From Candidatus Omnitrophota bacterium (GTDB taxonomy: Bacteria; Omnitrophota; Gorgyraeia; Zapsychrales; Fredricksoniimonadaceae), in assembly GCA_002753745.1 (NCBI GenBank), contig PEAR01000008.1, positions 1 through 36,373 on the forward strand: a stretch of DNA of 36,373 bases, given 5' to 3'. The notes under the pieces are model-generated. The model ran no database searches. It was given only the letters and a program-made list of their open reading frames with translations, and was not told the DNA's origin. Below, piece after piece: positions 1 through 31,183 of this stretch. The position numbers were made by a program, and so were the translations under genes. Each line of letters begins with the position of its first letter. Positions within the stretch are counted from its first letter, which is position 1.

Positions 1-185
1 ATGAAGTTTCGAAAGGCTTTGTAAGCTTGTTTGATCTCAGCATAGGTTTTAAGGGTGATACATAGAATTTTGCCCGCCTCACCGGGTATCAGGGGGTAAG
101 GATCAATGGTATCATTCCCACCATTAAAGCCCTGACGAATTGTGAAAAAGCCGGCTTCGGTATAGAATACTCTTATGGAAAACAA
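1..185 (-). CDS. Possible partial protein of unknown function (left edge)
   Basis: An open minus-strand frame runs from a TTG at 185 to the left edge without a stop. The translation looks protein-like (…YTEAGFFTIRQGFNGG… then …EIKQAYKAFRNF) and matches no family I recognise. There is no good ribosome-binding site. The start would overlap the start of the plus-strand gene at 175 by 11 bases. It could be the 5' part of a divergently transcribed gene that continues outside the window, or a chance open frame. Confidence 0.25.
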   Translation of the reverse strand, partial: MFSIRVFYTEAGFFTIRQGFNGGNDTIDPYPLIPGEAGKILCITLKTYAEIKQAYKAFRNF

Positions 186-387
186 AGATAAAAGCTTTCT
201 CGCTGTCTTATGTCTGTCCATCCTGACGATAAGCGCCGTTACGGTCAGCAATATCATCGTCACAACAAGAATTCCTTCTAGCCGGGACAGCGATAAATCA
301 ACCTTCGTCTCAACCAATGAATTAAAAGCGACATTCGCGGCCGCCGGGCTTGCACTGCACCCGGCGAAATACTGGAAGGCCTTATGA
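175..387 (+). CDS. Small membrane-anchor protein, probable detached N-terminus of the radical SAM enzyme
   Basis: This 70-residue protein has a short polar start, one hydrophobic helix at about residues 8-31, and a soluble tail ending in HPAKYWKAL. Its stop overlaps the start of the radical SAM gene in an ATGA, so the two are probably translationally coupled. Many AmmeMemoRadiSam-type enzymes carry an N-terminal leader followed by a segment like xARYYxKL just before the first CxxC pair. The tail of this protein followed by the start of the next reproduces that order. I infer that an ancestral single gene has been split by a -1 frame change, or that a -1 frameshift, programmed or a sequencing error, joins the parts. 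Confidence 0.6.
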   Translation: MENKDKSFLAVLCLSILTISAVTVSNIIVTTRIPSSRDSDKSTFVSTNELKATFAAAGLALHPAKYWKAL

Positions 388-1358
388 TCAACGTCGAATG
401 CACCCTGTGTCCCCGGCACTGCAAACTGGCCCAGGGCCAGCGCGGCGATTGCCGGGTGCGCACGAATGTCGACGGCAAGCTCTTCTCGCTCGCTTATGGC
501 AACCCCTGTGCCGTGCACGTTGACCCGATCGAGAAAAAGCCCGTTTTCCACATGCTCCCCGGGACAACAGCATTCTCCGTCGCCACCGCCGGCTGCAATC
601 TGCATTGCCTGTACTGCCAGAACTGGGAGATCTCCCAAAGTCCTCCGGAGAAAACACGGAATGTGTCCCTGACACCGGAAGAGGTCGTTGCCGATACCAT
701 CAAGGCCGGCTGCCAAAGCATTGCCTACACCTATTCCGAACCGATCGTTTTTTACGAATACACCCTCGATACCTCACGCCTGGCCCGGGCAAAAGGACTG
801 CGCAACATCATCGTTACTGCCGGGTATATTGAACAGGAGCCTTTGCTCGAACTTTGCAAGTCCGTCGACACCGCCAGCGTTAACCTTAAAGGGATCACCG
901 AAGAATTCTACAAAAAGATGTGCCATGCCACACTTAAACCTGTACAGGATGCCATCCTCACCATGAAAAAGAACGGTGTCTGGGTTGAGATCATCAACCT
1001 GGTGATCCCCGCCTGGAATGACAGCGACCGCGATATCCGCGCCCTGGCCCGCTGGGTCAAGGAAAACTGCGGCCGGGAGACGCCATTGCATCTCTCCCGT
1101 TTCTGGCCCATGCACAAGCTCCAGAACCTGCCACCGACGCCAATTGAAACACTCTCGCGCGCCTGGGAGATCTCCCATGCCGAAGGACTTGATCATGTTT
1201 ATGTCGGAAATATTCCTGAGCATCCCGGTAACAACACGCAATGCCCGTCATGTCAAAAGATCATCATCAAACGTTACGGGTACGAAATCCTGGAGAACCA
1301 CCTGAACATGGGCAAATGCGAATACTGCGGGATCTCGATCCCGGGGATATGGAGCTAA
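384..1358 (+). CDS. amrS: AmmeMemoRadiSam system radical SAM enzyme
   Basis: A 324-residue radical SAM protein of the PflA-like family that co-occurs with AMMECR1 and MEMO proteins in other genomes. The 4Fe-4S motif is CNLHCLYC (Cys71, 75, 78), within the family-typical run ATAGCNLHCLYCQNWEISQ. An N-terminal Cys group lies at Cys6, 9, 13 and 23, and the block NPCAVHVDPIEKKPVFH is diagnostic. Two C-terminal CxxC pairs (CPSC and CEYC) suggest a further metal site. The substrate of the system is not established. The start overlaps the stop of the upstream anchor ORF (ATGA). No AMMECR1 gene is present in this window. The only LigB/MEMO-fold protein, at 17563, is of the YgiD type. Confidence 0.9.
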   Translation: MINVECTLCPRHCKLAQGQRGDCRVRTNVDGKLFSLAYGNPCAVHVDPIEKKPVFHMLPGTTAFSVATAGCNLHCLYCQNWEISQSPPEKTRNVSLTPEEVVADTIKAGCQSIAYTYSEPIVFYEYTLDTSRLARAKGLRNIIVTAGYIEQEPLLELCKSVDTASVNLKGITEEFYKKMCHATLKPVQDAILTMKKNGVWVEIINLVIPAWNDSDRDIRALARWVKENCGRETPLHLSRFWPMHKLQNLPPTPIETLSRAWEISHAEGLDHVYVGNIPEHPGNNTQCPSCQKIIIKRYGYEILENHLNMGKCEYCGISIPGIWS

Positions 1359-1513
1359 AAAAATGAACCGGCATGGTCATCACCAACAATGCTATGATCA
1401 ATCAGCCCGACCCCGCGATCTGCCCCGGCGGCAACCCCATCCATAACCGCCAATAACGGATACAACCTATGATCAGGAAAAAAATGATCTGTGAGCAGGC
1501 GCATAAAACTCCT

Positions 1514-1547
1514 AAAAAAAAGCGCGGGGCTTTAACCCCGCGCTTTT
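1514..1547. terminator. Bidirectional rho-independent terminator
   Basis: AGCGCGGGG at 1521-1529 pairs perfectly with CCCCGCGCT at 1536-1544 around a 6-base loop. An A run lies on the left and a T run on the right, so it can act on both strands. It sits between the convergent ends of the radical SAM gene and the channel gene. The rest of 1359-1573 shows nothing I can support. Confidence 0.85.
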
Positions 1548-1573
1548 ATTGATCCAGGAAAAATCAGTGAACA

Positions 1574-2257
1574 TTATTTATTGATATTCTGCTTGTTAAA
1601 GAAATCCCAAAGGATCTTCGCCGCCAGATCCTTGCCGCCAAGGCCAAACGACAGCGCCAGCGCCAGGCAGATCGCCGCAAAAAAGATCTGGAACGTCGTG
1701 GTCACAAAGAAGGACGCAATATTGAGCTCTTCGAGTACCACCACCGTCGTAAAGACCAGGATCGCTCCTTTGGCCACGCTGCCCAACAGTTCCGCACGGG
1801 CCAGTCCGGCATCCGCCGCCGCTGCTTTAATAACACCCGAGATCAGGTTAGCCAAAAACATCCCCACGATCAGCACGAACACCGCTGAAATGACATTGGG
1901 GATATACGAGGAAACCTTGACCAGCAACGTTGCTGCGACATTAAGCCCGATCGCATCAACGGTCGTTGCAAAAACAACGATCATTCCTGCCCAATATACC
2001 GCCGAAACCAAAAGCGCCGTCGGAGATAATGGGACATTGCCTTTACTGAGAAGATCTGTCAAACCGATCTTGGCCGAGAAATCATTGAACTTTATGCCTT
2101 CCAGAGCCTTCTGAACAAGACCGCTGACGATCTTCGCAATGATCCAGCCCGCCAGGAGGATAACAAGCGCACCGAACAGCACCGGAACAAATCCCCCCAC
2201 CTTGTTAAGCATCGTTTTTACTGGTTCGAGTATGATCTGATTCCATCCTGTCATCAT
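1574..2257 (-). CDS. Mechanosensitive-channel-like membrane protein (TM helix repeat)
   Basis: This 227-residue integral membrane protein has about five hydrophobic helices. Two copies of a helix pair, FVPVLFGALVILLAGWIIAKI and YIPNVISAVFVLIVGMFLANLI, match the conserved TM-helix repeat found near small-conductance mechanosensitive channels. Such proteins sit in the inner membrane. The soluble beta domain of MscS is missing, so it is better called channel-like than MscS. The C-terminus (FGLGGKDLAAKILWDF) also fits the repeat family. The start is supported by AAAGGAGGG a few bases upstream. A second ATG follows directly, so the protein may begin one codon later. Confidence 0.8.
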   Translation of the reverse strand: MMTGWNQIILEPVKTMLNKVGGFVPVLFGALVILLAGWIIAKIVSGLVQKALEGIKFNDFSAKIGLTDLLSKGNVPLSPTALLVSAVYWAGMIVVFATTVDAIGLNVAATLLVKVSSYIPNVISAVFVLIVGMFLANLISGVIKAAAADAGLARAELLGSVAKGAILVFTTVVVLEELNIASFFVTTTFQIFFAAICLALALSFGLGGKDLAAKILWDFFNKQNINK

Positions 2258-2292
2258 AAAACCCTCCTTTTAAAAGTTTACCAATTTGATCT

Positions 2293-2322
2293 ATTCTACT
2301 ACCCGGCAATGCTCCTGTTCAA
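2293..2322 (-). promoter_or_regulatory. Probable sigma70-type promoter of the channel-like gene
   Basis: On the minus strand, TTGAAC (2317-2322) and TAGAAT (2293-2298) are separated by 18 bases, about 35 bases upstream of the start codon at 2257. Confidence 0.5.
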
Positions 2323-2356
2323 TAAATAAATAAAAGAAAATTGCTGAATAAATAAG

Positions 2357-2384
2357 TTGACAATAAACTTAATTGCGCTATTAT
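2357..2384 (+). promoter_or_regulatory. Consensus sigma70-type promoter for a small RNA
   Basis: A perfect TTGACA (2357-2362) is followed after 16 bases by TATTAT (2379-2384). No convincing plus-strand protein gene follows. A structured stretch ending in a terminator does. Confidence 0.6.
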
Positions 2385-2390
2385 TAAATC

Positions 2391-2535
2391 AGTTCTTTAA
2401 CAGCTTATTTAATCCCTCCTCCCCTGGCTCAGGATCAATGAGCCTAGGAGACATCCGCTTCAATCTCCCTGAGAACGCCCTTGGTTTCTCGAGGGCGCTC
2501 GAAACCCCGTGCTATCCCTTGGCGCGGGGTTTTTT
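2391..2535 (+). ncRNA. Candidate structured small RNA of unknown family
   Basis: About 145 bases lie between a consensus promoter and a plus-strand terminator. Hairpin 1 is built on GGCTCA (2426-2431) and TGAGCC (2439-2444), with flanking CC/GG and CTCC/GGAG pairs. Hairpin 2 pairs CGCCCT with AGGGCG around 2476-2497. The terminator is hairpin 3. The gene downstream is convergent, so this is more likely a trans-acting RNA than a leader. It does not show the SRP RNA tetraloop region, and I could not match it to 6S RNA. The 64-aa ORF overlapping it (2357-2551) has no credible ribosome-binding site and is probably not a gene. Confidence 0.5.
2502..2535 (+). terminator. Rho-independent terminator
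   Basis: AAACCCCG at 2502-2509 pairs with CGGGGTTT at 2525-2532, followed by a T run to 2535. The U tract is clear only on the plus strand, so it ends the candidate small RNA and not the convergent minus-strand gene. Confidence 0.75.
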
Positions 2536-3004
2536 ATTGTTCTGTGGATGATCGCACAGCCCATCGAGCAGACACAAACGCCCACCGGGCAAAAATAAAC
2601 CCCGTGTACGGGGCAGCCATAATAAGAAGAGCAATCGGCCATTCTTTTCGCGCAAAGAAATTAAGGAACCATAAAGGGTAAACGATAACTAATGACCAGA
2701 AGATAAAAAGCAGAACAAACAGCGTCCATTCATCAGCGAATCTTTTCTGGGTTTCAGACGTAAAAAACACATTCGAAACCAGGTATGCCCAACGCAATGA
2801 CCGGAACAACAAAAATAACAGGCGGCCTGCCAGATAGACCAGATATAGCCCAAACATCACGACAAAATTCTGCCAAAACAGTCCCTTGTCTTCAAAAGAT
2901 CTGGTGAATAACAAAGGAATAGCCATCGCGGCAGCCCAAAAAAAACCCACGATAAGGAACATCAGCCACTCAAACGCCAGAAACTTGCGCCATTTTTCAT
3001 TCAT
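2534..3004 (-). CDS. Four-helix integral membrane protein, unknown function
   Basis: A very hydrophobic protein of 156 residues with four predicted membrane helices in two pairs, rich in Trp and Phe and with few charged residues outside the loops. The segment between the pairs (SETQKRFADEW) is polar. I do not recognise the family. I chose the ATG at 3004 because AGGGG lies 9 bases upstream. A TTG three codons earlier would also give an open frame. It stands alone between the small RNA and the polyamine operon, and its 3' end touches the small-RNA terminator. Confidence 0.65.
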   Translation of the reverse strand: MNEKWRKFLAFEWLMFLIVGFFWAAAMAIPLLFTRSFEDKGLFWQNFVVMFGLYLVYLAGRLLFLLFRSLRWAYLVSNVFFTSETQKRFADEWTLFVLLFIFWSLVIVYPLWFLNFFARKEWPIALLIMAAPYTGFIFARWAFVSARWAVRSSTEQ

Positions 3005-3068
3005 TCGTAACAACCCCTGTATTAACTTATTATTTTATCTTATAAGATGGGGGAAAAATATCAACATC

Positions 3069-4826
3069 TTAATAGGCCGTTCGAATCCTGCTCCACTCCT
3101 CCCGTAAAGGAAATAATGGGTGAAATAGAGAATTGACATCTTCGATATCAACAGCTTCCGAAAACCGCTCCTGCCCGGATAAACCAAGACGCACACGCTC
3201 ATCAGTCATTACTCTTAACCCGGGGACATCCAGGGGCATCGGCTCTAAAGAGCGAAGCTGCGGCGACGCCATAATGAAACCGGCGCTTAAAGCCTCCAGA
3301 TACCCCTTTAAGGCCTCGGCATCTCCATCAAGGACCGTCAACGCAGCACGATTATCCTCTTCCAGGCTTGAAAAGAAAGGCCTGACATTGCCAAAACCGG
3401 CAGCGTGAAGCGTACTGGAAAAGATCTTCCAGGAAACTCCCGCCCCTTTCTTGTCACCCTCCATCTCCCGTGAAATGCCAGGCGCATCGAGGACCAGCAT
3501 CCCGTCAGAAAGAAGGGTCTGGCGAGCAAAAGTGTAAAACTCCCGGCTATACAGTTTAGCCAGGTCATAGTCATCAGGATTCGGAAAATCACAAAAGACC
3601 ATATCAAACTTTTCGCGGGTATGACGCACATACTGATACGCATCCCCCGTTATGATCTGTACGCGAGGGTCAAGCAACGAGTGATCATTCAACCGGGACA
3701 AATCCGGGTTAAACTTGAATATCTCAACGACCTTAGGGTCGATATCAACCAGGATCACGCTTTTAACCTGAGAGTATTTCAAGATCTCCCTCAATAATAA
3801 CCCATCCCCCGCCCCAAGGATAAGCACCCGCTGAGGCACCCGCCCCAGGACTGAGACCGGCACATGCGCAAAGGCCTCATGGTAAATACGCTCGTAGGAG
3901 ACCGCGAACTGAAAATCATGATTCAAGAACAAAACCGAACCCTCAAGTTTTTTATTGTCAGCTGCAGCCGGCTTGATGAAGGCCGCCGCCAACCCCCTGG
4001 CTTCGGCTCCGATGTCATCGGCTGTCACCAGGTCAATCACCTGATAAGGTGAGCGCAGGCGTTCAACATGCCCGGTATATTTCCTTGGCTTAAAGAAATC
4101 AACAGACAACGTTTTATCCTGAAAACTAAAATAATACTTCGAGATAAAATAGCCCTCGATCTGCGGCGCAAAAAACAACAACATCGAGAACAAAAGAAGC
4201 AAGGCCGTCAGACGCTTTCTTCCCTCGATGGAACGGAAATGCCGCAGTAACCATAACGCCGCGACGGCGTTCAACCCGGCAACAAGAAAAGCCGCGGTCA
4301 TCACATCCATGACAGGAAGAATAAAAAAGGGAAAGATCAGTCCGGCCAAAAGCGCGCCGGCATAATCCATCAGGAGCACGCGAGCCGTTTTATCAACTGA
4401 ACCGCCGATTGGCTGCTCATCAACCATCGTCAGCAGCAACGGCAGCTCTACCCCCGCGCCGATCCCGACCGCCAAAGCCACCGCAAAGGCCGCCCCGAAA
4501 AAGATCACTTTAGCCAGAAGTTCTTGACCCGCAAGACCACAAAAAAGCGAGGCCAGCGCCGCAGCATGAATCAGGAAGACCGATAATCCTCCGGCGACCG
4601 CGACCCAACATTCCACCCGCCAAAGCCGCTGCCAGGCCGGCCGCCCTTTCTGCCCCCGGCCACTTAAAGCCGCACCCAGGCCCATGCCGCCGATAAAAAT
4701 CCCGACCGCCAATGCATACCAGACCGCGTTATTGACCGCCCATAATGATACGGCACGCGCGATCAATAACTCATACATCAACGCGCATCCTGCCAGAAAA
4801 AAGCTCAGGCCGTAAACCGCAATCAT
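3069..4826 (-). CDS. speE: Membrane-fused spermidine synthase-like aminopropyltransferase
   Basis: A 585-residue fusion. Residues 1-220 form about seven membrane helices with YELLIARAVSLW, GVELPLLL and MDYAGALLAG motifs. Residues 295-480 are the soluble aminopropyltransferase fold, with LGAGDG (338-342, nucleotide pocket), VDIDP (Asp361/Asp363), GDAY (394) and CDFPNPDDYDLAKLYSREFY carrying the likely catalytic Asp413. The family transfers an aminopropyl group from decarboxylated S-adenosylmethionine to an amine. A polar insertion at about residues 268-296 and a C-terminal extension are longer than I expect. The usual DE in the LNGxLQ…DE…YHE block reads YERIYHE, so acceptor specificity may differ. 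The start overlaps the decarboxylase stop by 4 bases. Confidence 0.88.
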   Translation of the reverse strand: MIAVYGLSFFLAGCALMYELLIARAVSLWAVNNAVWYALAVGIFIGGMGLGAALSGRGQKGRPAWQRLWRVECWVAVAGGLSVFLIHAAALASLFCGLAGQELLAKVIFFGAAFAVALAVGIGAGVELPLLLTMVDEQPIGGSVDKTARVLLMDYAGALLAGLIFPFFILPVMDVMTAAFLVAGLNAVAALWLLRHFRSIEGRKRLTALLLLFSMLLFFAPQIEGYFISKYYFSFQDKTLSVDFFKPRKYTGHVERLRSPYQVIDLVTADDIGAEARGLAAAFIKPAAADNKKLEGSVLFLNHDFQFAVSYERIYHEAFAHVPVSVLGRVPQRVLILGAGDGLLLREILKYSQVKSVILVDIDPKVVEIFKFNPDLSRLNDHSLLDPRVQIITGDAYQYVRHTREKFDMVFCDFPNPDDYDLAKLYSREFYTFARQTLLSDGMLVLDAPGISREMEGDKKGAGVSWKIFSSTLHAAGFGNVRPFFSSLEEDNRAALTVLDGDAEALKGYLEALSAGFIMASPQLRSLEPMPLDVPGLRVMTDERVRLGLSGQERFSEAVDIEDVNSLFHPLFPLREEWSRIRTAY

Positions 4827-24679: not shown

Positions 24680-27600
24680 TCACCCCAGCTTTGAAACACC
24701 AGGCTGTTGTAACTCGGAGAATACTGGCATCTGTGAAGGCGTAACAGGTGCGATTTCCAGAATGATCGGAGCCAACCCCTGCAAATTAAACAATGCAGGA
24801 TCCTGAGCCTCAACTGGCAAAGGAATGCCGTCACCATCACGTTTGATTTCCATGTCGAGGTGCTTTTCATTCAAATCGATACCACCGGGGTTCTCAACGG
24901 CGGCTCCAGCCTGATCTTGTCCTTGATCAATAGCCCTATCTAACTGATCGGCCTGAGAAAAGTCCTTCTGCGCTCCGTCAGTTGATCCAGAGTTGCCACG
25001 ATCAAATAAAGCCTGACCAGTGGCAAAAAAACGCATGATGTTCAACAGCTCAACCGGAATTTTAACTTGTTCTTTCTCAATAATATGAAAGAACCATAAC
25101 AATCTCTGGCCAACGCTGCTTGTTGATTGCGTAATCTTATTTGCAAGTTCATCCCTCATCTTATCACTTACCGTACCTCCAAGCCGTTGAACAATGTCTT
25201 CCAAGACATCTTGTTGACCATCTCGAATAGCGGTCATTAACTTCCCAAGCAGTTTTCGATTCACTTTGGAAATTGAGAACGACGCGCCTGCGTCGATCAA
25301 AACAACACGAACACGTCCATTTTTACCTTTTTGTACAAGAATATTCCCTAAATGTGGATCTCCGTGATAAAAGCCTTCATAAAATATTTCACGCAATAAC
25401 TCATTGGCCACTGCCAGCTCAATATCCGCCAGATCTAGCCCCGCTTCAAGCACCTTCTCAACATTTGACAACTTTACGCCGTCAACGTACTCCATCTCGA
25501 TCAGAGAATTATTAAAAACTTCATATATTTGCGGCACATAAAATTCATAATCACCCTTAACCTCCCCTGATCGAATATCACCAAATAATTGGCGCAAGGA
25601 GAACTCCTTGATGTTTTTTAATACCGACGATTGAACACGCGTGCCGAGCTCCGTTGTATTCTTCCCTTCCTGTGGAAAATTCAATTCCAGAACAAAACTC
25701 TCTTCGATCTGATCAATAAAACTGTCAGGTACGAATATCCCCTTGGCAAGAAGTGCTTTCTTCAAATCATCATCAAAAACATCCTTTAAGAACTTAACCC
25801 CCGACTCGATCGTTTTCTCGACCTCGGGTCGCATCACTTTAAGAGCAACTACTTTCCCGTCAGTCCTGACTGCCCGGTAGACCCCGGCAATCTTAGCGCT
25901 TCCAAGAGGTTCTTCTATACTTTTATACCTGCCAGAAAGACCGAATTTTTCAACCATATCGAAAACAACGCCTTTATCCATCCTCCTGGCACCATCCTGA
26001 ACCTGCGATAATTCATCACGCATGGTCTTACTAACCCATAATGACCGCGAAAGCACTTGTGCAATCTGACGGCCTTCTAACCCAAGAGACTCCAAAAACA
26101 TCCGCACGGCACGTGCCTCCTGCCTTTCAGGCGTCATGTTCGGCTCATTGCGCTCCATTTCACCGCGCTGCAATGATAAAGTCCAAACCAGAGACAGAAA
26201 AATCTCTTCCCGTCTCGAGAGATCTGCCTTTTCAAAAACCTTATCGAAAACCTTTCTTAAAATAATCTTGTTTGAACCTTCCTTGATCAAAAAATCAAAC
26301 ATGCCTCCCAATAGGCTTTCCATCGCCGTGCCATCATTAAAAATTCCTTTTTCACCATATAAAAATGGCTCCAACGCCTCCCGCTGGGATGACTGTCCAG
26401 CTATTGAATAATATTTACTCTGTTTGCGTCCAAAATCCGTGCGAAAACTTTCCACGCTAACATGAAAATCGTATTCAAAGTTAACAAGAAAAACCGGCTT
26501 GTCGTTAGTAATCCCCATCAACCACAACAAAAAACCTACCTTATCCACCGGATTCTTCTCTTTAATGAACAAATGAAGAATATCCTGACCTAAAGCTGCC
26601 CGCTGATTCTTGCGGTCGTCCATACTTTCCACTTTGCGAAACGGATCAAGATACAAATCTCGAACCTCCTGATATTCTTTATCCGTCTTTGCCAAAAACT
26701 GCGCTGTTTCAGACAAAATATCGTCTTTAACAAGGCTTGGCATATCAAAAAACCGGTTGATAATCTTAAGCACCTCGCTCAAAGGCTGTTCAAACAGATT
26801 CGGATTCTCCGTTCGATACTGATCAAGTGCACTTAACGCCAGCTTTTCCCTTAATTCCTGATTATAAATCATGGACAGAAACTTCTCGGTTTCCTCAACC
26901 GTGATCGCAGAACCTTCAGCTTGAATAGCTCTCTTGATCCATTTATCTTTTGCCGGTGAAGCACGAGGATAATATTTTTCAATCAGGCTCCTCTTGTCAG
27001 GCAATGACATTGTTGTAGAATCAATAATATTTTTTAACTCACCATCAAATAACTGACTGAAGAAAACATTCATTTGTGCTTGAGGGCCTCCCGGCACAGC
27101 AACCGAAACATCCTCATAGTCCTGAATTTCCCGGCCATGTTCCGCCCGAACAACCTCTGCATCTTCTTCATACCGTTCGCGACCTCCTGACAAAACGCTC
27201 ACCCATAAACCACGATTTTCGCTCTCCTTATCCTTATCATGAACGATAGCGGGCAAGATTCTCATCACATGAGTCAGCACATAAGTCCGTTGATCGGGCG
27301 ATAACGCCGCTAGATGCTGTTGTATCTTTTTTAGATCAAACATCTCTTCGGGATCTTGAACGCGATAGGCAGTTTGTTGAACAAGAATCTTTTCAACGAA
27401 CAGCCTATGTAAAATAAAATTACGTACTATTGACGGTGGCAACGCTTTTACCACCATATCAACCGCATCTTCATATGTTCGAGGCAAACGAGCGATAAAC
27501 TCAAAACGCTTGATAAAATTTTCTGAATTCTGATCTGAATAAAACATGCCACCAATTTCTCGAAAACGTACGATATTATAAGGACGTGAATAGCCAGGGT

Positions 27601-30067
27601 CACCAGGGTCATAATTTCTTGCCACCTCTCTTGGCATAATATTGCCCCAGGGACCTTGCCTAATATCACCATTATCAGCAACCTCTCCAGAAAATGACTG
27701 CAGTCTCAAATCATGTCCAATCTCTATAAAAAATGCTTGCAAAAAAAGAGGCGTCATCAAATTCGAGAAAGCCTCGTCCTGTTGTTCCACCGTCACGTCT
27801 TTATCAACCAGTCGCTGTTTAATAAAATCTCGGTAATATTCAACAAACGCTTTAATAATTAAAATGTCTTTATCGTTTGCCTTGGTAATTTTACCAAACA
27901 AAGCCTCATTCAAGTCGCCATTATCGGGAATTCCTCCTAAAACAAGCACATAAAGCAATGGCTTAAAATCTCGGGACACCTCGCCAAGCAAAGGCCGCAA
28001 GGCTTCTGGTGTATGTTCGATAAGCACTCGATCGTAATCGTCACCCGAAAACATTTTCGCCTGATCCTTACTCCACCTCAAATAATCCAACACTCCTCCA
28101 TCGCCATTTATATGTTCATTTGATAACTTTCTTAATATCTGCTGCTGAACCGAAATAATATCATTCACTGTCAGAATGCCAGGATCCTGGCTTATTTGCT
28201 TCATCACATCATCACCATAACCACTATCGATCAACTGCTGTAAATATCCGACTACGGTGTTTTCCGAAAACACCGAATGGCCTGTATTGAAAAAACTTCC
28301 CAAGTCTTCTCGCAACACGGCTTTTCGTAATTCGTCCTTTCCTTTCTTACCAAAAACCCAATCAACAAGAACTTCTTTCGCAGGCAGCGAGCAATTTCGC
28401 GCCATATGTAATATGTCAGTCACAATCAAAGCCTGCGAATAGCGTTTTTCCTTCTTATCTGGCCTCTGCCCATAAAAGTTTTCCAGAATCCCAAGCATTA
28501 ATCGAACATCTTCTGGAGTCATTTCAGAAACATAGCGAGGAGAATGAAGGATTAAAGACAACGCCTCTGCCATTGGTATTGTCAACCAAAAGGATCTTGA
28601 GCTTTGACTCCATCGAGTCAACGGCAACAAACTTGCTCTAACTTCCGACCAATTAAGATGACCGCTGTTCAGCTTTCCGATCAACAATCTATAAAAACCA
28701 TCCACAAATCTTTTTTGATAAATGGCAAACCGATGATTTTCATCTAATGGCTTATTTACCGGGTCTTCTGCAATAGTCTCATTAAAGCGCCTTAACACAG
28801 CTTCAGCTTTTTTATGCTTGCCAGTTTTTTGTAAAAGGTCGACATTAATATGGCTATTCCCAAGATCTGGGGCGTCAAATAAATCCAAGACACCTCGAAC
28901 CGTCTCAGCAGAAAGTTGCCCACCCAACCGCGCGAAAACATCAAAATCATCCTGCCTTAAATTCAGAACTATATAAATCTGATCCCGAATAAACTCATAA
29001 AAAACACGTTTGGCTTCATCTTCACCAGCAAACTCTCTCAACTTTTGCTCAAAGATCGGCTGAACCTGATTTTGTGCGGCCTTCTCCGTTGCTGACAGCT
29101 GATCAAAACCGATCAACATGGCAAATTGAAGTTCATCAATATTCCTTGCACTCTGCAATAAAGCAATCAAACCTGTCGAAGTATTCACTGAAATTACTTG
29201 CTCCTGATACTCTCGGAAGCTTGTTCTTTGCTGCGCGGCTCTAACGGCAACCAAAGGTAAAGCTGTATTCCCTTGATTCAACCAGTGATGCATCTTTACA
29301 TTGTTTTCCACTTTTCTTAAGCGCTCTTCGATCTGGGGATGAGATCCCCAAAAAGAATCCGCCATATCTCGTTTCTCCAAATAATGAACAATGGCCCGCA
29401 AAGCATACGGGGCTGACCCAACTGAAAAATTACTCCTATCTGATAATCCCAACGCCAAAAGATCGCTCTGATATTCTCTTGCCCTGTCCTGGACATGATC
29501 ATCAATCAAACTTGTCTCTTCGTCGACCCGTCCGTCATCAATTTCCCGCCGAAATTGCATAACATGCTGAATTTCATGATCGATCACGAACGCTAACGCA
29601 TCACGCGTTTCATCATCTACATTACTATCAAGTGCATATTCACTAAAGGCGGCTATTAACCCTGTATTGACAACAATCACATTATAGTGCTTAACAACAT
29701 ACGCATTGGGTTCTCTATTATCGGCAAGATAAAAATGAAACTCCTGCGGATTTAATCCTTGGGCGATTAGAGAACGGTCAATAATACCGCGCACTTCTTC
29801 ATACAATGGCTGAAACCGCACGAAGTCTTCCTGCCCCGGAGCAATAAAGCGGTCTGTAAAATCCTTCCGCTTCAGAAACTTTTCTTTCCGCTCGGCATTT
29901 CGGATATATTCGTTCTGCGATTTTAAGGGGTTTCCCGCAATAGTCTTCCCAACGCGCCCCCCCTTACGAATGCCTGAGCTTTCTGGACTCAAATTATTAC
30001 CTTTAGATAACCCGAGAAAACCCAAGGTGGCTCGCATGGCCGCTTTAATATTTGTCGTCAACCGCAC
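24680..30067 (-). CDS. Giant M48 metalloprotease - ABC1 kinase fusion protein
   Basis: 1795 residues as read from a GTG at 30067. Residues 85-260 are an M48-type zinc protease: HEIQHVMQF (His164, Glu165, His168), REYQSD (Glu198) and SHPQIEERL. A long, mostly helical middle of about 1,100 residues has no recognised domain. Residues 1390-1640 are an ABC1/UbiB-type kinase: PLGSAKIAGVYRAV, VALKVMRPEVE (Lys1410), ELNFPQEGKN, IEMEYVDGVKL, FYHGDPHLGNILV (from 1568) and LIDAG (Asp1592). The KxGQ motif of UbiB is not seen. The last 100 residues are low complexity. No ribosome-binding site precedes the GTG, and the frame is continuous with the gene upstream except for one TAG, so this is probably the distal part of one gene. 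Confidence 0.85.
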   Translation of the reverse strand: MRLTTNIKAAMRATLGFLGLSKGNNLSPESSGIRKGGRVGKTIAGNPLKSQNEYIRNAERKEKFLKRKDFTDRFIAPGQEDFVRFQPLYEEVRGIIDRSLIAQGLNPQEFHFYLADNREPNAYVVKHYNVIVVNTGLIAAFSEYALDSNVDDETRDALAFVIDHEIQHVMQFRREIDDGRVDEETSLIDDHVQDRAREYQSDLLALGLSDRSNFSVGSAPYALRAIVHYLEKRDMADSFWGSHPQIEERLRKVENNVKMHHWLNQGNTALPLVAVRAAQQRTSFREYQEQVISVNTSTGLIALLQSARNIDELQFAMLIGFDQLSATEKAAQNQVQPIFEQKLREFAGEDEAKRVFYEFIRDQIYIVLNLRQDDFDVFARLGGQLSAETVRGVLDLFDAPDLGNSHINVDLLQKTGKHKKAEAVLRRFNETIAEDPVNKPLDENHRFAIYQKRFVDGFYRLLIGKLNSGHLNWSEVRASLLPLTRWSQSSRSFWLTIPMAEALSLILHSPRYVSEMTPEDVRLMLGILENFYGQRPDKKEKRYSQALIVTDILHMARNCSLPAKEVLVDWVFGKKGKDELRKAVLREDLGSFFNTGHSVFSENTVVGYLQQLIDSGYGDDVMKQISQDPGILTVNDIISVQQQILRKLSNEHINGDGGVLDYLRWSKDQAKMFSGDDYDRVLIEHTPEALRPLLGEVSRDFKPLLYVLVLGGIPDNGDLNEALFGKITKANDKDILIIKAFVEYYRDFIKQRLVDKDVTVEQQDEAFSNLMTPLFLQAFFIEIGHDLRLQSFSGEVADNGDIRQGPWGNIMPREVARNYDPGDPGYSRPYNIVRFREIGGMFYSDQNSENFIKRFEFIARLPRTYEDAVDMVVKALPPSIVRNFILHRLFVEKILVQQTAYRVQDPEEMFDLKKIQQHLAALSPDQRTYVLTHVMRILPAIVHDKDKESENRGLWVSVLSGGRERYEEDAEVVRAEHGREIQDYEDVSVAVPGGPQAQMNVFFSQLFDGELKNIIDSTTMSLPDKRSLIEKYYPRASPAKDKWIKRAIQAEGSAITVEETEKFLSMIYNQELREKLALSALDQYRTENPNLFEQPLSEVLKIINRFFDMPSLVKDDILSETAQFLAKTDKEYQEVRDLYLDPFRKVESMDDRKNQRAALGQDILHLFIKEKNPVDKVGFLLWLMGITNDKPVFLVNFEYDFHVSVESFRTDFGRKQSKYYSIAGQSSQREALEPFLYGEKGIFNDGTAMESLLGGMFDFLIKEGSNKIILRKVFDKVFEKADLSRREEIFLSLVWTLSLQRGEMERNEPNMTPERQEARAVRMFLESLGLEGRQIAQVLSRSLWVSKTMRDELSQVQDGARRMDKGVVFDMVEKFGLSGRYKSIEEPLGSAKIAGVYRAVRTDGKVVALKVMRPEVEKTIESGVKFLKDVFDDDLKKALLAKGIFVPDSFIDQIEESFVLELNFPQEGKNTTELGTRVQSSVLKNIKEFSLRQLFGDIRSGEVKGDYEFYVPQIYEVFNNSLIEMEYVDGVKLSNVEKVLEAGLDLADIELAVANELLREIFYEGFYHGDPHLGNILVQKGKNGRVRVVLIDAGASFSISKVNRKLLGKLMTAIRDGQQDVLEDIVQRLGGTVSDKMRDELANKITQSTSSVGQRLLWFFHIIEKEQVKIPVELLNIMRFFATGQALFDRGNSGSTDGAQKDFSQADQLDRAIDQGQDQAGAAVENPGGIDLNEKHLDMEIKRDGDGIPLPVEAQDPALFNLQGLAPIILEIAPVTPSQMPVFSELQQPGVSKLG

Positions 30068-30121
30068 GTCAACTCGATCTAGGTCTTTGTTGTGCGCAAC
30101 TGCAAAATCAACAGCCTCGCT

Positions 30122-31183
30122 CTAGGCCGCGTCTGATATCATTCCTTCAGCCCAAGCCTTTGCTCCACCCGAGAAATATTTCCTCGGGATGACCTCCTGA
30201 GTCAATGGGTCTTGCTCTTCCTTGATAAAGTTAAACACACCCTTTTTGTACGCCTCAAGATATTGCTGATAAATCCGCTCCTTCGCCTGCGGATCGTCAA
30301 GCTCAACTCCAGCCACCTTTGACTTGTTAGCATAAACCTGCCCCAAAATGCTTTTCTTTAGCGCTTTCTTAAACCATGTTGCCATCAGCATCGAGCTGTA
30401 AACCTGACGTAAAAGAGCAAAATTCTCACCCTCATTCACTTCCTTTTCAAGAGCCGGAATAACGATCTCACGAACTACCGTCTTGGAAAGCTCCTGGGTT
30501 TCTTTCTGCGCCGCAGCTTCTGGCCGGGACTCACCATGCGATTTCTCTAGCGCAAAATAATCACTTTCCAACATGACTTTCAAGTGACTCTTGATGGCCA
30601 AAGCCGTGTCGAACTTTTCATAAATAACAGCTTTGTCCGGCACAATCCAAACCTTGTTGAATGTATCCAACGGAATATCCGTTGTGCCGTACTTTTCGAA
30701 AGCCATCTGATAAACTTTCTGCCAGAATTTCTTGCCAACCTCACCCTCTGGATAAATCAACGACGACGTGATCTGCTTCAAAACATAATCCTGCGCCAAA
30801 AGGTCGCGCCCCATTTCAGTCAGTGAGAAATTATCAGGAATAATGCGATCAGCCTCGTAAGGAGACAGGTTGACCCACATGTCGGTGTTGGGAACGGTCA
30901 ACGAAACAAGAAAATATTTGAGGAGCTTTTGATACTCTGACTTCTTTACATCATCTGTTAGAGGAGTTTTCCCGCGACTGATAATAAAATTGAACCGGAA
31001 CGGATCTTTTGGGCTAACCTGAACCCCAACCATTAAAGCAGGCTCAAACTTTGCGCTTAAAGGAATCATCTGCCCAGGCGCAGGTAAAATAAGACTCTGA
31101 GCATAGGCAAACGCCACGCTAGAGCAAAAAAACGCAACGAGCGTCACACCAGAAATAACCCTCTTAAAGAATTTCAAATCCAT
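30122..31183 (-). CDS. Exported N-terminal module of the giant protein
   Basis: 353 residues beginning with a signal peptide (MDLKFFKRVISGVTLVAFFC, likely cleavage after AYA at 28). LPAPGQMIPLSAKFEPALMVG and DPFRFNFIISRGK follow, a module I associate with the start of very large Omnitrophota proteins. The rest is helical with no catalytic motif visible. It ends at a TAG (30122-30124). The next 18 codons and the 1795-residue ORF continue in exactly the same frame, and the amino acids just after the TAG (SEAVDFAVAHNKDLDRVDV) look like normal protein. It could be a complete small exported protein, but I favour an interrupted gene. GGCAGGGA precedes the ATG. Confidence 0.75.
   Translation of the reverse strand: MDLKFFKRVISGVTLVAFFCSSVAFAYAQSLILPAPGQMIPLSAKFEPALMVGVQVSPKDPFRFNFIISRGKTPLTDDVKKSEYQKLLKYFLVSLTVPNTDMWVNLSPYEADRIIPDNFSLTEMGRDLLAQDYVLKQITSSLIYPEGEVGKKFWQKVYQMAFEKYGTTDIPLDTFNKVWIVPDKAVIYEKFDTALAIKSHLKVMLESDYFALEKSHGESRPEAAAQKETQELSKTVVREIVIPALEKEVNEGENFALLRQVYSSMLMATWFKKALKKSILGQVYANKSKVAGVELDDPQAKERIYQQYLEAYKKGVFNFIKEEQDPLTQEVIPRKYFSGGAKAWAEGMISDAA

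What the first reader, a model, noticed from the sequence alone, without database searches (positions are those of the whole stretch)
24680..30067. Zinc protease and ABC1-type kinase on one very large polypeptide
The M48 motifs (HEIQH, REYQSD, SHPQIEER) at the N-terminus and a near-complete set of ABC1/UbiB kinase motifs at residues 1390-1640 are joined by about 1,100 helical residues. ABC1 kinases normally act inside the cell on quinone or lipid metabolism, while the upstream module has a signal peptide. I know of no described protein with this pairing and size. It may be an envelope protein-quality or predation-type factor. The function is conjecture.
Basis: partly seen in the sequence, partly recalled or inferred. 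Interest (0 to 1): 0.8.

Follow-up and report, generated by a model that had tools for sequence, protein, structure and literature searches.

The report
Exported zinc-protease and kinase polyprotein
A bacterium of the little-known phylum Omnitrophota encodes a huge, probably exported protein that joins a zinc protease to an atypical kinase, and it is one of about 45-50 proteins in the same genome that share the same two ends while carrying almost entirely unrelated enzymes in the middle.

Summary
ORF 24680-30067(-) carries an M48 protease (Pfam E=9e-10) and an ABC1/UbiB kinase (E=2e-37) with catalytic residues intact, joined by an all-helical ~1,100-residue region. The same order occurs in single uninterrupted ORFs of 2,178-4,393 aa in seven other proteins from five families of the class, so it is not an assembly error.

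The upstream ORF 30122-31183 is in frame, separated by one TAG; relatives have sense codons there. The protein is really signal peptide, ~310-aa N-module, protease, helical scaffold, kinase, ~55-aa C-module (~2,167 aa).

The end modules match no Pfam family or PDB sequence. They bracket 45-50 ORFs in this 2.5-Mb genome, 7% of it. The cargos are nearly all unrelated; between congeners only 1 of 20 is shared. Cargo is cysteine-depleted (0.18% versus 1.3%), which supports export. Ends and cargo have different histories, so the gene is a mosaic.

My reading: a phylum-specific polymorphic set of exported enzymes, this one a protease-kinase, probably acting in or on other cells. Export and bracketing are well supported; the target is inference. 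The copy in this genome may be a recent pseudogene (TAG).

The parts
31094..31183 (-). Sec-type signal peptide (MDLKFFKRVISGVTLVAFFCSSVAFAYAQ), N-terminus of the full protein
   Evidence: Hydrophobic core and AYA-Q site; the same pattern in nearly all siblings. No dedicated signal-peptide predictor was available.
30164..31093 (-). Conserved N-module, about 310 aa, ending YFSGG
   Evidence: 47 ORFs in own genome; 137 of 384 phylum genomes; no Pfam, NCBIfam or PDB match
30122..30124 (-). In-frame TAG that splits the gene in this genome
   Evidence: Same frame on both sides; sense codons (Gln, Glu) in congeners G002 and G001
24683..30121 (-). Open frame (1,813 codons) with the cargo and C-module; called ORF 24680-30067 from GTG
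29165..29914 (-). M48 zinc-protease domain (HEIQH, EYQSD, HP motifs)
   Evidence: Pfam PF01435 E=9.4e-10; catalytic residues invariant in 8 homologues; PDB 3c37 and BepA
25919..29200 (-). About 1,090-residue all-helical, alpha-solenoid-like region
   Evidence: AlphaFold2 model with helices only, pLDDT 64.6; generic HEAT/ARM-type Foldseek hits with TM 0.1-0.2
25211..25930 (-). ABC1/UbiB-like kinase domain
   Evidence: Pfam PF03109 E=2.3e-37; PDB COQ8A, 5yjz, 7cy2
24740..24892 (-). Conserved C-module (GGIDL...KRDGDGIPLP...GLAPIILEI)
   Evidence: 41 ORFs in own genome, at the extreme C-terminus; no PDB match

Best explanation
The protein is one member of a lineage-wide set of exported, bracketed proteins in Omnitrophota. 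Each has a Sec signal peptide, a constant N-module of about 310 aa, a variable cysteine-poor cargo and a constant C-module of about 55 aa. The constant ends take the protein out of the cell or onto its surface, and the cargo does the work. Here the cargo is an M48 zinc protease, a long helical scaffold and a UbiB-like kinase. I propose that it acts on or inside other cells (prey or host), where ATP is available: the protease cleaves target protein (or the polyprotein itself), the scaffold binds partners, and the kinase phosphorylates a protein or lipid. Shown: domains, conservation, bracket, cargo variability, mosaic ancestry, cysteine depletion. Inferred: export route, delivery into another cell, substrates. 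In this genome the gene carries an in-frame TAG and may currently be inactive.
For: Both domains and their catalytic residues. Same order in single ORFs of seven other proteins from five families. Shared N- and C-modules on 45-50 ORFs. Cargos almost all unrelated within the genome, and 1 of 20 shared with congener G003, against 4 of 5 ordinary proteins. Ends and cargo of the same gene have different histories: 4-fold-site change 23-26% at the ends, 62-72% in the cargo, 68% in RF3. Cysteine 0.18% of cargo versus 1.33% in other window genes, p=9e-40; 0.10% in G003; in the radical-SAM member three of four cysteines are the cluster motif. No free-standing ABC1 in this genome and one in 32 family genomes, so a quinone housekeeping role is unlikely. 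Predatory or parasitic lifestyle proposed for the phylum (PMC10066038).
Against: No experiment. No translocation machine was identified, and how a Sec-exported protein of this size would enter another cell is unknown. No recognised toxin domain in this protein. The window copy is split by a TAG and its cargo sits on a long branch, so it may be decaying. The N-module could not be modelled well.
Confidence: 0.5

Rival explanations
1. The protein is exported but stays in the producer's own envelope as a large protein-quality or outer-membrane-assembly factor: the M48 domain works like BepA, and the kinase domain is a regulatory or nucleotide-binding module.
For: Nearest M48 structures include the periplasmic protease BepA. 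Signal peptide and cysteine depletion fit any extracytoplasmic site. UbiB-type domains can bind nucleotide without clear kinase activity (PMC4718504).
Against: An envelope housekeeping factor should be conserved among congeners; this one is absent from G003 and broken in G001. Sibling cargos include enzymes that need ATP, SAM, PLP or an FeS cluster.
Confidence: 0.25
2. The proteins are not exported: the hydrophobic N-terminus is a membrane anchor with the cargo facing the cytoplasm, as large membrane-tethered multi-enzymes.
For: Cargo enzymes are of cytosolic type and need cytosolic cofactors.
Against: AxA-type cleavage sites in nearly all members and strong cysteine depletion of the cargo, neither of which this predicts.
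Confidence: 0.12
3. In this particular genome the gene is a pseudogene: a nonsense TAG separates the exported N-module from the protease-kinase part, which is no longer made or no longer exported. This can be true together with the best explanation.
For: TAG in a codon that is sense in congeners; cargo branch several times longer than that of G002; another sibling also interrupted by TAG; the orthologue in G001 is broken by an IS630-type transposase.
Against: 1,813 codons without a further stop, and all catalytic residues kept. A consensus error in the assembly cannot be excluded.
Confidence: 0.4
4. Assembly or annotation artefact that joined two unrelated genes.
For: The genome is a 240-contig draft.
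Against: Same order in one frame in independent genomes from different studies.
Confidence: 0.02

Closest known systems
UbiB/COQ8 (ABC1, ADCK) atypical kinases
   Same: Pfam ABC1 fold and catalytic residues; nearest PDB sequences are COQ8A and UbiB-like proteins
   Different: Part of an exported polyprotein; KxGQ and the A-rich loop altered; far below the NCBIfam UbiB equivalog cut-off (141 versus 487.55 bits); no free-standing copy in this genome
M48 peptidases of the BepA type
   Same: HExxH, Glu ligand and HP motif; extracytoplasmic; structures 3c37 and BepA are nearest
   Different: BepA is a shorter protein in PDB (up to 492 aa chains) with TPRs (own knowledge); here the protease is joined to a helical scaffold and a kinase
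Polymorphic toxin systems (PMC3482391)
   Same: Constant trafficking parts with highly variable effector parts, spread by recombination
   Different: Variable part lies between two constant ends rather than at the C-terminus; cargos are mostly metabolic-type enzymes; no immunity gene identified
Giant multidomain proteins of Omnitrophota (PMC10066038, PMC12419801)
   Same: Same phylum, very long ORFs, mixed enzymatic domains including peptidases, methylases and histidine-kinase parts
   Different: Those reports do not describe, in the passages I could read, the shared N- and C-modules, cargo turnover, cysteine depletion or the M48-ABC1 pairing
Type IX secretion cargo (C-terminal sorting domain)
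   Same: Signal peptide at the start and a conserved C-terminal domain on many unrelated cargos
   Different: C-module has no Pfam or PDB sequence match; SprA_N not found, but that control did not ring
Plastoglobule ABC1 kinases and M48 protease (PMC3635846)
   Same: An M48 protease and ABC1 kinases occur together in one lipid-associated compartment
   Different: Separate proteins, in plastids; an analogy only

Membership tests
M48 peptidase (Pfam PF01435) | Profile match and HExxH + Glu + HP motifs | tested here: met
M48 peptidase (Pfam PF01435) | Zinc-dependent proteolysis | not testable with these tools
   Needs a biochemical assay
ABC1 superfamily (Pfam PF03109) | Profile match and kinase catalytic Lys, Asp, Asn, Asp | tested here: met
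UbiB/COQ8 proper | KxGQ motif and Ala-rich (AAAS) loop (PMC4718504) | tested here: not met
   QIAQ and GSAK in the window; the more distant homologues G302, G192a and G192b keep KxGQ
UbiB/COQ8 proper | NCBIfam UbiB equivalog cut-off | tested here: not met
   141 bits versus 487.55
Polymorphic toxin system | Constant trafficking module with variable effector | tested here: met
   but the variable part is internal
Polymorphic toxin system | Cognate immunity gene next door | tested here: not met
   Neighbours are an MFS transporter, a RecG-C-like ATPase domain and translation/methyltransferase genes; no dedicated search was made
Type IX secretion cargo | C-terminal sorting domain of a known family | tested here: not met
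   No Pfam match at the C-terminus and no PDB match of the C-module profile
Type IX secretion cargo | SprA translocon in the genome | tested here: inconclusive
   No SprA_N match in an incomplete genome, and the control rang nowhere

The most novel reading that the evidence does not exclude
A previously undescribed delivery system in Omnitrophota: two constant terminal modules export interchangeable, cysteine-purged cargos (kinases, radical-SAM and PLP enzymes among them) into other cells. The repertoire is nearly species-specific and is built by recombination of ends and cargos. The M48-ABC1 protein is one such cargo, a delivered protease-kinase derived from the UbiB fold with its restraining motifs altered.
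Probability: 0.4. Interest if true: 0.92.

Novelty: categorically new. Interest (0 to 1): 0.8.

Why it matters
Omnitrophota are widespread, uncultured and suspected predators or parasites whose giant proteins are described as poorly understood. Constant ends with interchangeable cargo give many of those proteins a common grammar: anyone can list the members from any genome, ask what the two modules do, and read the cargo as a candidate set of exported enzymes. It would also be a new setting for the UbiB kinase fold, outside quinone metabolism, and an unusual case of cytosolic-type enzymes apparently adapted to life outside the cell by cysteine loss.

Tried and rejected
Assembly error or chance fusion: rejected by independent genomes. 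'Cargo was swapped into conserved ends', as first read from synonymous divergence: revised after the RF3 control showed that genome background is itself saturated (0.68), so it is the ends that are unusually similar between window and G002; ends and cargo still have different histories. TAG recoded as sense: not supported, since TAG ends ordinary window genes, though a second sibling is also split by TAG. N-module structure: model too poor (pLDDT 56, five sequences) and no fold match. Middle region: only generic solenoid matches, TM 0.1-0.2. First genome-contig query of eight divergent rows had no stretch conserved enough. No relatives in viral contigs. No Rfam match in the window; promoter and terminator scans near chance level. 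Literature searches found no description of the modules or of the pairing; preprints and most subscription journals are not in that library.

Full report
OBSERVATION. The reported ORF (24680-30067, minus strand, 1,795 aa, GTG start) is real. Pfam places ABC1 at aa 1380-1619 (E=2.3e-37) and Peptidase_M48 at aa 91-170 plus a second stretch (E=9.4e-10), both above curated cut-offs. A profile of eight homologues hits COQ8A/ADCK3 and UbiB-like structures with its C-terminal part and M48 structures (3c37, BepA) with its N-terminal part. Catalytic positions of both enzymes are invariant. The roughly 1,090 residues between them are predicted to be helix only (pLDDT 64.6). Foldseek returns generic HEAT/ARM solenoids with TM 0.1-0.2, so 'alpha-solenoid-like' is as far as this goes.

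THE GENE IS LONGER THAN REPORTED. ORF 30122-31183 lies directly upstream in the same frame; one TAG (30122-30124) separates them. In congeners G002 and G001 that codon is a sense codon. The G002 frame runs straight through from the N-module to the C-module (2,178 aa; its contig begins inside the N-module). The natural protein is therefore about 2,167 aa: signal peptide, N-module, M48, helical scaffold, kinase, C-module. The TAG in this genome may be a real nonsense mutation or a consensus error; TAG is an ordinary stop in other window genes. A second bracketed gene in this genome (contig C93) is also split by an in-frame TAG, with an open frame on to a C-module. I have no explanation for the coincidence beyond chance or shared decay.

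THE FUSION IS CONSERVED. A search of 384 genomes of the class gave matches in 13. Pfam confirms M48 followed by ABC1 in single ORFs of G002 (2,178 aa), G056 (2,400), G303 (2,774), G049 (3,272), G192 (3,558 and 3,109) and G302 (4,393), from five families. Named records with the gene are two Omnitrophota/Omnitrophica genomes, one labelled Elulimicrobium and one labelled Elusimicrobia. The distribution is patchy: congener G003 has no match, and in G001 the gene is interrupted by a transposase that resembles IS630 (family name from my reading of the sequence).

A BRACKETED FAMILY. The N-module (about 310 aa after the signal peptide, ending YFSGG) and the C-module (about 55 aa, GGIDL...) recur across the genome: 47 ORFs have the N-module and 41 the C-module, and ORFs intact at both ends nearly always have both. 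Two pairs are halves of one gene on different contigs, so I estimate 45-50 genes; the ORFs sum to 7.3% of the 2.54-Mb assembly. N-modules are about 42-66% identical to the window's. Neither module has a Pfam or PDB sequence match; the N-module has no NCBIfam match. Across the phylum the N-module is found in 137 of 384 genomes. In some M48-ABC1 proteins of other families the N-terminal part differs (G303 35% identical, L118 unrelated).

CARGO IS UNRELATED FROM GENE TO GENE. Recognised cargos here: serine acetyltransferase plus a cystathionine-synthase-type PLP enzyme, trypsin-like protease, B12/radical SAM, GH26, SNF2 helicase plus methyltransferase, PPDK, TPR, starch-synthase-like, ThiS, subtilase, GNAT, response regulator and a second ABC1; most cargos have no Pfam match. 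In G003: two amino-acid dehydrogenases in one protein, methyltransferases, HATPase, starch-synthase-like, DUF1861. Among 49 cargo pieces in this genome only two genuine homologous pairs are detectable. Of 20 bracketed ORFs read in G003, all have the N-module (48-78% identical to the best copy here) and 19 the C-module, but only one cargo matches any cargo here. As a control, 4 of 5 ordinary window proteins are found in G003 at 30-85% identity. The window assembly is 86% complete, so some matches may be missed.

ENDS AND CARGO HAVE DIFFERENT HISTORIES. Between window and G002 the N-module is 97% identical with 23% of comparable 4-fold sites changed, and the C-module region 91% with 26%; the cargo is 35-71% identical with 62-72% changed. 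Genome background, judged from RF3, is 79% identity and 68% changed. So the ends have been shared or homogenised more recently than the genomes diverged, and the cargo has not. Conversely, the G002 cargo is 65-83% identical to that of G056 and G303 from another family, whose N-modules are only 56% and 35% identical to that of G002. The gene is a mosaic. This was tested for one gene and one control gene.

EXPORT. Nearly all members begin with a hydrophobic segment and an AxA-type site. Cysteine is 0.18% of cargo (72 of 41,138) against 1.33% in 27 other window genes (108 of 8,090), Fisher p=9e-40. Leaving out the four most cysteine-rich window proteins still leaves about 0.9% (my arithmetic). 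G003 cargos have 0.10%. The cysteine-biosynthesis-type cargo has none. The B12/radical-SAM member has four cysteines in 967 aa, three of them the CxxxCxxC cluster motif. Dispensable cysteines have been lost and the catalytic ones kept, which suggests a working enzyme in a place where free cysteine is costly.

THE KINASE. This genome has only two ABC1 domains, both in ORFs that end with the C-module. Among 32 genomes of the family only G015 has a classical UbiB-sized protein (565 aa frame); the other matches lie in frames of 904-2,831 aa or in the broken G001 copy. Quinone housekeeping is therefore unlikely. The UbiB KxGQ motif reads QxAQ in the window and its near relatives, and the A-rich loop begins with Gly. 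In ADCK3 these elements restrain catalysis (PMC4718504). The residue that switches nucleotide preference there (A339) is still Ala here by my alignment, so greater activity is only a suggestion.

MECHANISM. Most likely the constant ends export the protein and the cargo acts away from the producer's cytoplasm. Enzymes that need ATP, SAM, PLP or an FeS cluster make sense outside the producer mainly if they reach another cytoplasm, and Omnitrophota have been proposed to be predators or parasites (PMC10066038). A role in the producer's own envelope is the main rival. Shown: domains, conservation, bracket, variability, mosaicism, cysteine depletion. Inferred: translocation route, target cell, substrates.

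NOVELTY. Giant multidomain proteins in Omnitrophota are known (PMC10066038; PMC12419801 lists histidine-kinase, methylase and peptidase domains). I found no description of the two modules, the cargo variability or the M48-ABC1 pairing in the library I could search, which lacks preprints and most subscription journals. 'Categorically new' refers to the two modules and the bracket, not to the protease and kinase folds, which are known.

Noticed in passing
L144 (G000 contig C93:4100-7364), frame from locus base 336: A second bracketed gene of the same genome is split by an in-frame TAG, with an open frame on both sides and a C-module at the end. Two TAG-split siblings may be chance, decay or something about TAG.
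   Followed up: partly
L017 (G001:C39) 1234-2338: In G001 the orthologue of the window gene is interrupted by a transposase ORF (IS630-like by eye), with much of the middle missing.
   Followed up: no
L115 (G000:C27) 1-3342: A second ABC1-bearing ORF with a C-module in the same genome, about 26-28% identical to the window kinase; cut by the contig start.
   Followed up: partly
L034, L035, L038, L031 N-termini: Giant proteins of other families begin with other recurrent-looking N-terminal sequences (e.g. 'IHIQDAH' and 'FRPLHLRSLSYDS'), so several bracket types may exist in the phylum.
   Followed up: no
L081 538-3438: Bracketed protein with B12-binding and radical-SAM domains and only four cysteines in 967 aa, three in the CxxxCxxC motif.
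   Followed up: partly
L079 582-5843: Bracketed protein joining serine acetyltransferase and a cystathionine-synthase-type PLP enzyme, with no cysteine in 1,754 aa.
   Followed up: partly
G000 contig C91 (L085, L086): Five bracketed genes lie on this one contig, several adjacent, which suggests clusters where cargo could be exchanged.
   Followed up: no
L116 and L118 record titles: Records with this gene are labelled Elulimicrobium (Patescibacteria in NCBI taxonomy) and Elusimicrobia, at odds with the Omnitrophota labels of their relatives.
   Followed up: partly
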